A stretch of 64,000 bases of DNA, taken from the NCBI RefSeq assembly GCF_006376685.1, contig NZ_VEWL01000001.1:186001-250000 (forward strand), in the 5' to 3' direction. The stretch comes from Ochrobactrum teleogrylli (lineage in GTDB: Bacteria > Pseudomonadota > Alphaproteobacteria > Rhizobiales > Rhizobiaceae). The notes beneath the pieces were generated by a model, which saw nothing but the letters and a program-made list of their open reading frames with translations, was not told the origin of the DNA and made no database searches. Below, piece by piece: positions 58,202-60,150 of this stretch (the first letter of the stretch is position 1; every line of letters starts with the position of its first letter). Position numbers and translations under genes: made by a program.

Positions 58202-58854
58202 TCGACCTGCGTTCTCTCGCCAATCCGGGCAGGCCGCTTCAGCTCTTATGTCTGGGCGCGCATTCGGACGATATCGAAATCGGCTGCGGGGGAACGCTCC
58301 TCAGTCTGATCGAAGCGGGAACGCCGATGCACATAGAATGGTGTGTGTTGTCGGGCAGTGAAGATCGTCGCGCCGAGGCGGAGGCTTCAGCGCGCGATTT
58401 TCTGCGCGGTACGGAAAATCCCGGCATCAGGCTTGCGGCGTTTGAGGACAGTTATTTTCCGGCGCAGATTCGCGAGATCAAGGGGTGGCTGATCGAACAG
58501 CGCAGCCGCCAGACGCCGGATATTGTGTTCACCCACCGTCACGGCGACGCGCATCAGGATCACCGCACAGTCAACGAACTGACCTGGAACCTCTTCCGCG
58601 ACCAGCTGATCCTCGAATATGAAATCCCGAAATGGGATGGCGACCTCGGCCAGCCCAATGCCTATTCAACCCTTTCGGCGGCGATCATGGAACACAAGGT
58701 CGAGCTGTTGATGAAGCATTTCGGCACGCAGCGTTCGAAGGACTGGTTCGACCCGGAAACATTTCGCGGACTGGCGCGGCTGCGCGGCATGGAATGTCGC
58801 GCGCCGGAAACCTATGCCGAAGCGTTTCATATGCGCAAGCTGCGACTGTTTTAG
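58198..58854 (+). CDS. PIG-L/LmbE-family deacetylase
   Basis: A 218-residue zinc-dependent de-N-acetylase family protein. Zinc ligands are in LGAHSDDIEIGCGGTLL (about 19-35, the AHxDD motif) and THRHGDAHQDHRTVNEL (about 112-128). The family removes acetyl groups from GlcNAc-type sugars and related metabolites. Its ATG overlaps the rfbF stop codon (ATGA). It is the last gene of the locus, facing the convergent small-RNA gene. Confidence 0.92.
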   Translation: MIDLRSLANPGRPLQLLCLGAHSDDIEIGCGGTLLSLIEAGTPMHIEWCVLSGSEDRRAEAEASARDFLRGTENPGIRLAAFEDSYFPAQIREIKGWLIEQRSRQTPDIVFTHRHGDAHQDHRTVNELTWNLFRDQLILEYEIPKWDGDLGQPNAYSTLSAAIMEHKVELLMKHFGTQRSKDWFDPETFRGLARLRGMECRAPETYAEAFHMRKLRLF

Positions 58855-58870
58855 CTTTGTCTGGAGATAC

Positions 58871-58990
58871 AAAAAAGCCCGTCGCGCTGGGAGGAGGAGT
58901 GCGCAACGGGCTGATTGGTAAAGCGCGATTGGGAGGAGGAGTATCGCGCTTCGTGTCCGGTTTCTGGGAGGAGGAGTGAAACCGAACAAC
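58871..58990 (-). ncRNA. Small RNA with three CUCCUCCC (anti-Shine-Dalgarno) hairpin loops, 'cuckoo'/CcsR type
   Basis: Read on the minus strand, three hairpins follow one another, each showing the identical 13-base loop ACUCCUCCUCCCA (loops at 58965-58977, 58930-58942 and 58888-58900). The stems are 10 bp (58955-58964 with 58978-58987, one G-U), 9 bp perfect (58921-58929 with 58943-58951) and 12 bp with one G-U (58876-58887 with 58901-58912). Stem sequences all differ while the loop does not. The last hairpin is followed by six T residues and serves as the terminator. CUCCUCCC loops are the mark of alphaproteobacterial trans-acting small RNAs able to cover ribosome binding sites. The 5' end is not determined. 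Confidence 0.85.
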
Positions 58991-59063
58991 GTGAAAATAG
59001 GTGCGCGGTCAGAGGTTTACAAGAGGACATGCTGCAGGGCAGCTATGCATTTTTTAAAGGGCT

Positions 59064-59190
59064 AAAAAAGAAACCGCCCCGCAGCGGTCTAGCGCGCTGG
59101 GGCGGTCACTCCCTCCTCCAAGTGGAGCACACAATAATGTGGGAGTTTCTAAAAGCAAGCCCCCGACAAAACTCTATAAATTTCAGAAAA
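59064..59190 (-). ncRNA. Second structured small-RNA candidate with intrinsic terminator
   Basis: On the minus strand an outer stem, ACTCCC/GGGAGT (59141-59146 with 59108-59113), encloses two small hairpins, CACA-TTAT-TGTG and CTCCA-CT-TGGAG, giving a three-way junction. An 8-bp terminator stem, ACCGCCCC/GGGGCGGT (59099-59106 with 59073-59080), follows, then TTTCTTTTTT. The run GGAGGAGGGAG (complement of 59109-59119) sits inside. The overall shape recalls the alphaproteobacterial suhB-motif/MmgR (alpha-r8) RNAs, but that match is from memory. The 5' end is only approximate. Confidence 0.6.
59073..59106 (-). terminator. Intrinsic terminator of the second small-RNA candidate
   Basis: Stem ACCGCCCC / GGGGCGGT with an 18-base inner part, followed on the minus strand by TTTCTTTTTT (complement of 59064-59072). 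It separates the two minus-strand RNAs. Confidence 0.8.
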
Positions 59191-60150
59191 TACTGAAATC
59201 CATGAAGCTGATTGAGTAGTTACCGGGTCTCCTGCTAATGAGCGGTTTGGTCTCGACTAATCTCGGGTCGTACTCGCCCAAACTGTGTGGCAGCCAGCCG
59301 AACAAAACTTTGGCTAATATTTGATATATTTTATTGACTACCTACTTGCCGTGAGGCGGAGTGGAACCACAGCAAGCTGTCATTTGAGTGTGCTTCGCAG
59401 TTGTACCCCGCAATTCTCCGAGATTGCTATTTCCATTTTGGAACAGGTGTGATTAGGTTCGCGCCGACGGATTTAAGGAATCAGTCTTCAAATTTCACTG
59501 ATGCGATAGGCTTGTGCGGTGGAAATTTAGACAGGACTATAAAAACTCTGACTCAATAAGAGTTTCAAAAAAAGCCTTATGATCTCGGATGTTTAACCAG
59601 ATCGTCCTCCCAATTAAGTGGGATAATTATCCGTTTTGATCACGTAATCTTTCAGACTGGAACCCTTTGTTGGTTTTAGAATCGGTCTTTAGTCGCCATT
59701 TTTTCACTGCGTGCACTCCTGAGAGCTCGCCCGCCTCGCGCCCCTAAGCCCCCCGCCCAAACGCGAGGCGGTTCCTTATCCAGGAACCATCAGTTTTTCC
59801 CAAGAATCGTAACAATCGAATATGCTGGCTTCGGTCCGCGCATTTTGAGTTGCAACGCGCATTACCCTTCGGTTCGTATAAAAATCGCAGTCACGTTTTA
59901 AGACGTAACGCAGCGTCACATTTGATTGGGATTTAATCGTAAATCTGATGCGCTTTCTTCTGTGGAAGACGCCGAAAAGCCCGGCTGATGCCCTATTCTT
60001 CGGGTACGTTTAAGCCAGTTGAGTCGATTGGTGCGCGAGGTGCACCGCAGCTTGGCCACGTCTTGGAATGCATGCAGCAGTGGGTCCGGCTTCATGCTAG
60101 CGCGCCTTTGCTTTGTCGGAGGGTGTGCATGTCAGGACGCCAGCCAAAAA
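59191..60150. other. About 960 bp AT-richer noncoding region before minC
   Basis: No ORF of convincing quality on either strand. It contains a 10-bp perfect hairpin, CCGCCTCGCG / CGCGAGGCGG (59731-59740 with 59762-59771), directly followed by GGTTCC / GGAACC (59770-59775 with 59783-59788) and T residues at 59793-59797, so a plus-strand RNA may end there. AAACTCT / AGAGTTT near 59543-59566 forms a smaller hairpin. Base composition and lack of frames set it apart from the flanks. Confidence 0.5.

What the first reader, a model, noticed from the sequence alone, without database searches (positions are those of the whole stretch)
58871..58990. Minus-strand RNA with three identical anti-Shine-Dalgarno loops
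Three consecutive hairpins have different stems but the very same 13-base loop, ACUCCUCCUCCCA, which can pair with Shine-Dalgarno sequences. Stem pairing is kept while stem sequence varies, and the third hairpin doubles as a terminator. This is strong evidence of selection on the RNA. It fits the CUCCUCCC-loop 'cuckoo'/CcsR class of alphaproteobacterial small RNAs; three loops in one short transcript is more than the two I recall as usual. It may be a broad translation regulator, perhaps tuned to stress, at the end of a polysaccharide locus.
Basis: partly seen in the sequence, partly recalled or inferred. Interest (0 to 1): 0.88.

Follow-up and report, generated by a model that had tools for sequence, protein, structure and literature searches.

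The report
Known anti-Shine-Dalgarno sRNA with upstream partner
The three-hairpin RNA is a member of a family already described in this bacterial group, thought to silence genes by covering their ribosome-binding sites; just upstream sits a conserved element, probably a small RNA gene, that carries the matching ribosome-site sequence and may act as its decoy.

Summary
In detail: window 58872-58994 (minus strand) holds three hairpins with different stems and the identical 13-nt loop ACUCCUCCUCCCA, the third running into a T-run. It is not CcsR but Rfam RF02344 ar14 (92.6 bits, cut-off 58.8; CcsR1 28.2, cut-off 65.3). Three identical loops are the published norm of alpha-r14 RNAs (NfeR1), so the stated surprise falls away. 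In 26 orthologues the loops hardly change and 99.1% of stem cells pair, with 9 doubly changed pairs. The genome has five copies over cut-off, one with a fourth loop. Start sites matching the loop look rich in transporter genes, the target class reported for NfeR1.

What I did not find in print is next door: a conserved ~100-nt terminated element (59065-59166, minus; 'U') carrying GGAGGAG, complement of the ar14 loop. It lies under an operator-like palindrome otherwise found before a MarR-type regulator-cydDC-cydA operon, matches strongly in 29 of 35 genus genomes, and stands without ar14 in one. I read U as a candidate small RNA that decoys ar14; transcription and pairing are untested, and energy tests are mixed.

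The parts
58872..58994 (-). ar14 (RF02344) three-hairpin aSD small RNA
   Evidence: Rfam 92.6 bits over 1-123 of 123 model positions; fold z -9.7; covariation
58955..58987 (-). hairpin 1, loop 58965-58977 ACTCCTCCTCCCA
58921..58951 (-). hairpin 2, loop 58930-58942 ACTCCTCCTCCCA
58876..58912 (-). hairpin 3 with T-run (terminator-like), loop 58888-58900 ACTCCTCCTCCCA
   Evidence: not listed by the simple scan, whose loop limit is 8
58995..59023 (-). candidate -35 CTTGTA (59023-59018), 17-nt spacer, -10 CTATTT (59000-58995) of ar14
   Evidence: read by eye and recurring in the prints; the sigma-70 scan found no promoter, so this is inference
59033..59049 (-). dyad TGCATAGCTGCCCTGCA, candidate LysR-type (LsrB-like) site
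   Evidence: sequence, similar in the prints; analogy to the LsrB site of the NfeR1 promoter (PMC10746234, passages); binding not tested
59065..59166 (-). element U: candidate independent small RNA with its own terminator (59106-59071, then T-run)
   Evidence: model R1 105 bits; alignment A1 of 26 copies; terminator scan
59113..59124 (-). CACTTGGAGGAG of U; GGAGGAG (59113-59119) is the reverse complement of CTCCTCC in the ar14 loops
   Evidence: only exact CACTTGGAGGAG of the genome; kept in the strong model matches of relatives
59181..59198 (.). operator-like palindrome TTTCAGTATTTTCTGAAA upstream of U
   Evidence: the same palindrome, one central base apart, stands before the MarR-type regulator-cyd operon

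Best explanation
The feature is an ar14 (alpha-r14/NfeR1-type) trans-acting small RNA. Each of its three loops presents CCUCCUCCC, which would pair with strong Shine-Dalgarno sequences of the GGGAGGAG type and block translation start, chiefly of uptake and catabolic genes; the third hairpin would also terminate the RNA. Shown here: structure, conservation, family membership, copies, and the make-up of a sample of matching start sites. Inferred from the family: transcription, pairing with mRNAs, silencing, LsrB-like control. The adjacent element U is probably an independent small RNA under the regulator of the cytochrome bd genes, and its GGAGGAG may titrate ar14 loops (candidate sponge, inferred).
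For: RF02344 over cut-off, full length. Five copies over cut-off plus one weak one (31.6 bits) in the genome; in the family draw 40 of 41 genomes have a match over the cut-off. Covariation at this locus and across 104 distinct stems with a 13-nt loop, 69.5% paired against 42.7% with arms re-dealt, largest of 500 re-dealings 48.7%. In S. meliloti the three aSD motifs of NfeR1 act redundantly on mRNAs, and most target candidates encode ABC transporters (PMC10746234, passages). In this genome GGGAGGA-N3-9-ATG occurs 115 times against 6 for the reversed pattern; AAAGGAG-N4-9-ATG 60 against 31. Behind the 30 GGGAGGA sites opened stand 22 distinct ORFs of 80 aa or more; 20 of the 22 were scanned and 13 are transport proteins (9 of 10 with GGGAGGAG, 4 of 10 others). 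Behind the 30 AAAGGAG sites opened, 2 of 20 such ORFs are, 3 with a CorC/CNNM-type protein. Fisher p 0.0046 for 13/22 against 3/20.
Against: No RNA data were available, so transcription of this copy is unshown; in S. meliloti only one of six copies is reliably detected by Northern (PMC7143759, passages). The target comparison uses the first 30 sites in contig order of each kind, not all. A strong SD can be common in transporter genes for reasons unrelated to the RNA.
Confidence: 0.9

Rival explanations
1. It is a CcsR RNA, co-transcribed with a DUF1127 protein gene and released by RNase E, as in Rhodobacter.
For: Same loop motif; CcsR1 model matches at 28.2 bits. Two other arrays of this genome (C41 and C1:759270) lie 112 and 121 nt behind 48-aa DUF1127-like ORFs (recognised by motif, not by a Pfam scan).
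Against: CcsR1 score far under its cut-off of 65.3; ar14 scores 92.6. I see no such ORF before the window copy; a terminated element precedes it.
Confidence: 0.04
2. The stretch 58871-59166 is one long transcript: U is a leader or attenuator of ar14 and its GGAGGAG masks the ar14 loops in cis until processing.
For: Same strand and similar spacing: an ar14 array follows U in 28 of 29 strong copies; complementarity.
Against: U ends in a terminator-like hairpin; ar14 has its own conserved promoter-like block, read by eye; in G031 U keeps its palindrome with no ar14 array in the 3,100-base locus; in G016 and one named genome, perhaps the same, about 145 nt more lie between them.
Confidence: 0.12
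3. U is a conserved small RNA that does not act on ar14; GGAGGAG is there to bind other C-rich RNAs, the 16S rRNA tail or a protein, and its match to the loop is incidental.
For: GA-rich sequences pair with any CCUCC. Plain co-folding of U with ar14 is no better than for shuffled U (mean z -0.57, 26 pairs). In the accessibility test only 10 of 26 copies beat 49 or more of 50 shuffles; for the window copy 3 of 50 shuffles did as well. Shuffled 5' parts contain a 7-nt match to the loop in 491 of 5200 cases. 6 of 35 genus genomes have ar14 but no strong U.
Against: GGAGGAG is kept in the strong copies while neighbouring bases vary; accessibility-corrected pairing is on average stronger than in shuffles (mean z -2.2, 23 of 26 copies through GGAGGAG); the element keeps company with ar14.
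Confidence: 0.4

Closest known systems
alpha-r14 / ar14 RNAs (Rfam RF02344), S. meliloti NfeR1
   Same: Three hairpins with identical aSD loops and variable stems, terminator-like last hairpin, several copies per genome, LsrB-like promoter dyad (by eye); sampled matching start sites rich in transporters
   Different: The NtrC site of the NfeR1 promoter is reported as not evident in Brucella (PMC10746234, passages). Here a conserved terminated element with GGAGGAG precedes the gene; no SD-like stretch was found in about 400 nt upstream of 40 ar14 arrays of other genera
CcsR / cuckoo RNAs (RF02791), Rhodobacter
   Same: CCUCCUCCC in hairpin loops; two sibling arrays of this genome follow DUF1127-like ORFs as in the CIN1 layout (PMC10253847, passages)
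   Different: Window copy is below the CcsR1 cut-off and shows no DUF1127-like gene in front
CrfA sponge of Caulobacter SisA-D (alpha-r8)
   Same: For U: a G/A-rich stretch complementary to the aSD core shared by a sibling family (PMC12559287: abstract, passages and first part of the discussion)
   Different: U lies beside an ar14 gene and shares an operator-like palindrome with cyd genes; no interaction data. Homology to CrfA was not tested

Membership tests
ar14 (RF02344) | covariance-model score over the curated cut-off | tested here: met
   92.6 bits, cut-off 58.8, model positions 1-123 of 123
ar14 (RF02344) | three hairpins with identical aSD loops and variable stems | tested here: met
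ar14 (RF02344) | terminator-like last hairpin | tested here: met
   12-bp stem and a run of six T, the first of them paired; the simple scan does not list it because its loop limit is 8
ar14 (RF02344) | expression as a separate RNA of about 120 nt and silencing through the loops | not testable with these tools
   no RNA data
CcsR (RF02791) | covariance-model score over the curated cut-off | tested here: not met
   28.2 bits, cut-off 65.3
CcsR (RF02791) | co-transcription with a DUF1127 gene | tested here: not met
   no such ORF seen upstream of the window copy (by reading, one search lists only ORFs of 80 aa or more); present at two other arrays of the genome
sponge RNA (functional class), for U | complementarity to the seed of a family of small RNAs | tested here: met
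   28 of 28 strong model matches cut out without asking for the motif have a 7-nt or longer Watson-Crick match to the ar14 loop (the 29th, L084, was lost to a short contig end, but its genome's row L059 has it); 9.4% of shuffles do
sponge RNA (functional class), for U | predicted interaction better than chance | tested here: inconclusive
   accessibility-corrected mean z -2.2, 10 of 26 copies beyond 49 of 50 shuffles; plain co-folding mean z -0.57
sponge RNA (functional class), for U | binding and inactivation of the small RNAs in the cell | not testable with these tools
   no experiment

The most novel reading that the evidence does not exclude
Element U is an unreported small RNA of the Ochrobactrum branch of Brucella that mimics strong Shine-Dalgarno sites and titrates the aSD loops of the whole ar14 family. 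It would be made when the MarR-type regulator of the cytochrome bd operon lets go of (or activates at) the shared operator, so that a respiratory signal relieves ar14 silencing of nutrient uptake. Decoy and target are encoded as neighbours.
Probability: 0.33. Interest if true: 0.65.

Novelty: new member of a known kind. Interest (0 to 1): 0.42.

Why it matters
The finding itself adds one locus to a described family and corrects its name. What could matter is the pairing: aSD small RNAs can in principle hit many start sites, and how a cell limits them is open. A conserved element carrying the matching sequence, placed beside the aSD gene and sharing an operator-like palindrome with the cytochrome bd operon, gives a directly testable candidate for such a limiter.

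Tried and rejected
CcsR and other Rfam families for the window copy: all but ar14 below cut-off.

U as a known Rfam family: up to E 1 in 58700-60100 the only matches are ar14, CcsR1, anti-hemB and sX13, and none of these covers U.

U as an mRNA leader with a Shine-Dalgarno site: 23 of 26 copies have no start codon 4-12 nt behind GGAGGA; the window copy and its two nearest relatives do have a GTG at 4 nt. The copies also differ by one-base indels.

U by covariation: beyond the terminator (12 pairs, all invariant) the 5' hairpin is kept in only 63.7% of cells, so structure gives no support there; RNAalifold found no doubly changed pair among 24.

Plain co-folding of U and ar14: no better than shuffles. 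Reported as a result against the sponge reading.

Choice of U copies: the 26 rows of A1 were collected with a pattern that asks for CTTGGAGGA and for CCGCC within 40 nt, so the invariance of that block in A1, and '26 of 26', are partly by construction. Check without the pattern: 28 of 28 evaluable strong model matches and 28 of the 30 loci brought in by whole-region similarity carry ACTTGGAGGAG-type sequence; L072 and L073 do not. The model itself was trained on A1.

U outside the genus: 0 of the other 248 genomes of the order draw (strict filters, 16 candidates scored per listed genome). The pattern scan of genome contigs gave 22 stretches: 20 from records titled Brucella, Ochrobactrum or Rhizobiales bacterium, with the palindrome and an ar14 array; 1 more (L203, Brucella tritici) with the palindrome but only 109 bases left behind the motif; and 1 in Caulobacter without palindrome or loops, which by eye is coding sequence.

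Full report
What is there. The minus strand of 58872-58994 folds into three hairpins with the same 13-nt loop and different stems, the third running into six T, the first of them paired. Rfam names it ar14, RF02344, full length at 92.6 bits. The genome, of an Ochrobactrum/Brucella-type bacterium judging by the record titles of sequences with the same neighbour, has five copies over the cut-off and one weak one of 31.6 bits. One of the five (C41) has four loops in a row, and two (C41, C1:759270) lie 112 and 121 nt behind short ORFs of DUF1127 type (recognised by motif, not scanned against Pfam).

Is it selected. In 26 orthologues beside U the 31 stem pairs hold in 99.1% of 806 cells, with 9 pairs changed on both sides, while the loops hardly change. 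Over 104 distinct arrays of three or more loops in the loci then fetched, 90 have three loops, 13 four and 1 five (loci chosen by the searches, not a census). Three is therefore the usual number. This agrees with print: alpha-r14 RNAs have three hairpins, each with the identical CCUCCUCCC motif (PMC10746234, passages); three- and four-hairpin families were described in 2011 (PMC3927594, section 2.7); the family is reported in Brucellaceae (PMC7143759, passages).

How it works. In S. meliloti NfeR1 the three motifs act redundantly in silencing mRNAs, and most target candidates encode ABC transporters. The same logic fits here: GGGAGGA followed by ATG at 3-9 nt occurs 115 times against 6 reversed (for AAAGGAG at 4-9 nt, 60 against 31). 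Among 22 ORFs of 80 aa or more behind the first 30 GGGAGGA sites 13 are transport proteins by Pfam (20 of 22 scanned; the two unscanned counted as non-transport), 9 of 10 where the site is GGGAGGAG. Behind the first 30 AAAGGAG sites it is 2, or 3 with a CorC/CNNM-type protein, of 20. This is a prediction of targets from a sample, not a measurement.

The neighbour. About 70 nt upstream of the ar14 match, on the same strand, lies U (59065-59166). Twenty-six distinct copies share the blocks TTGCTTT, TTATT and ACTTGGAGGA and a terminator stem whose 12 pairs never vary, amid variable bases; GGAGGA is followed by G in 26 of 26. These copies were gathered with a pattern holding CTTGGAGGA, so I checked without it: in the 28 of 29 strong model matches that the script could cut out, ACTTGGAGGA and GGAGGAG are present in 28 and the 7-nt match to the loop in 28; the 29th (L084) was lost to a short contig end, and its genome's row in A1 (L059) has both. 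U is found strongly (89.6 bits or more) in 29 of 35 genomes of the genus, once each. Twenty-two weaker matches (34.5-50.1 bits) look like paralogues before further ar14 copies: by coordinates 19 of 22 have a listed ar14 match close behind on the same strand. Five such elements aligned carry a G-rich TTGGGGCTTT-type stretch instead of ACTTGGAGGAG. In 28 of the 29 strong cases an ar14 array follows. In the remaining genome, G031, U and its palindrome (one mismatch) stand without any such array in the 3,100-base locus, so U is not merely part of the ar14 gene. In G016 the spacing is about 145 nt longer. In about 400 nt upstream of 40 ar14 arrays from other genera no SD-like stretch was found.

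The operator. U is preceded by a palindrome of the form TTTCAGTAWTTTCTGAAA. The window genome has two matches to TTTCAGTANTTTCTGAAA without mismatch: before U, and before a 194-aa MarR-family regulator followed by CydD, CydC and cytochrome bd subunit I (the two sites differ at one central base). The nearest named family of the regulator, CudC, is far below its cut-off (52.9 bits of 218); 'GbsR-like' in my scripts is a recalled label. All 32 distinct fetched loci with a mismatch-free site fall into these two classes, 19 regulator and 13 U. A third site with one mismatch lies before a Stealth-type gene. In one search, 23 of 24 genus genomes and 0 of 16 others had a site with at most one mismatch. 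That the regulator binds there, and its direction of action, are inferred.

Does U act on ar14. For: the 7-nt or longer perfect match to the loop, present in 9.4% of shuffles; accessibility-corrected pairing energies stronger than in shuffles on average, mean z -2.2, through GGAGGAG in 23 of 26. Against: in that test only 10 of 26 copies beat 49 or more of 50 shuffles, and for the window copy 3 of 50 shuffles did as well; plain co-folding gives mean z -0.57; in several copies GGAG is partly paired in U's own fold; 6 of 35 genus genomes have ar14 without strong U; both partners are conserved, so there is no compensatory change. A published parallel is the Caulobacter sponge CrfA, whose G/A-rich stem loop binds the aSD core of four sibling RNAs (PMC12559287; abstract, passages and first part of the discussion). 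I give the sponge reading about one in three.

Print searches for U: 'anti-Shine-Dalgarno'+'NfeR1', 'sponge'+'sRNA'+'anti-Shine-Dalgarno'+'alphaproteobacteria', 'Brucella'+'small RNA'+'CCUCCUCCC', 'Brucella'+'sRNA'+'sponge', 'Ochrobactrum'+'sRNA'+'Hfq'+'intergenic'. From the listings and the passages I opened, none describes such an element; most listed papers were not opened. A Brucella sRNA review holds none of 'NfeR1', 'cyd' or 'Shine-Dalgarno' in its main text (PMC9751625, term search). Most subscription papers and all supplements were out of reach, so this is weak evidence of absence.

Noticed in passing
window 59065-59166, minus strand: Conserved element U, candidate small RNA with GGAGGAG complementary to the ar14 loops and its own terminator.
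   Followed up: yes
window 59181-59198; G000:C1:493045-493062 (L112, L185): Operator-like palindrome (one central base apart) before U and before a MarR-type regulator-cydDC-cydA operon.
   Followed up: yes
G000:C12:202292-202309 (L116, L189): One-mismatch copy of the palindrome (TTTCAATAATTTCTGAAA) before a Stealth-type (capsule phosphotransferase-like) gene; the same sequence is listed in other genomes of the genus, where its neighbours were not looked at.
   Followed up: partly
G000:C41:104188-104323 (L010, L187): ar14 array with four loops, 112 nt behind a 48-aa DUF1127-type ORF.
   Followed up: partly
G000:C34:248938-249066 (L014): Weak ar14 match (31.6 bits): a single CUCCUCCC hairpin that appears to stand just behind a solute-binding-type ORF (by eye); possibly a 3'-UTR-derived aSD hairpin.
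   Followed up: no
L049, L050, L055, L057, L058 and others: In several relatives a U-ar14 pair and a second ar14 with a G-rich U-like element stand back to back; in the window genome the two ar14 copies are 23 kb apart on the same strand.
   Followed up: partly
L013 748-832, minus strand: Glycine riboswitch (RF00504, 60.1 bits) near the C1:759270 ar14 array.
   Followed up: no
G000:C1:268361-268444: Weak U paralogue (35.1 bits) in front of the second ar14 copy, with TTGGGGGCTTT in place of ACTTGGAGGAG.
   Followed up: partly
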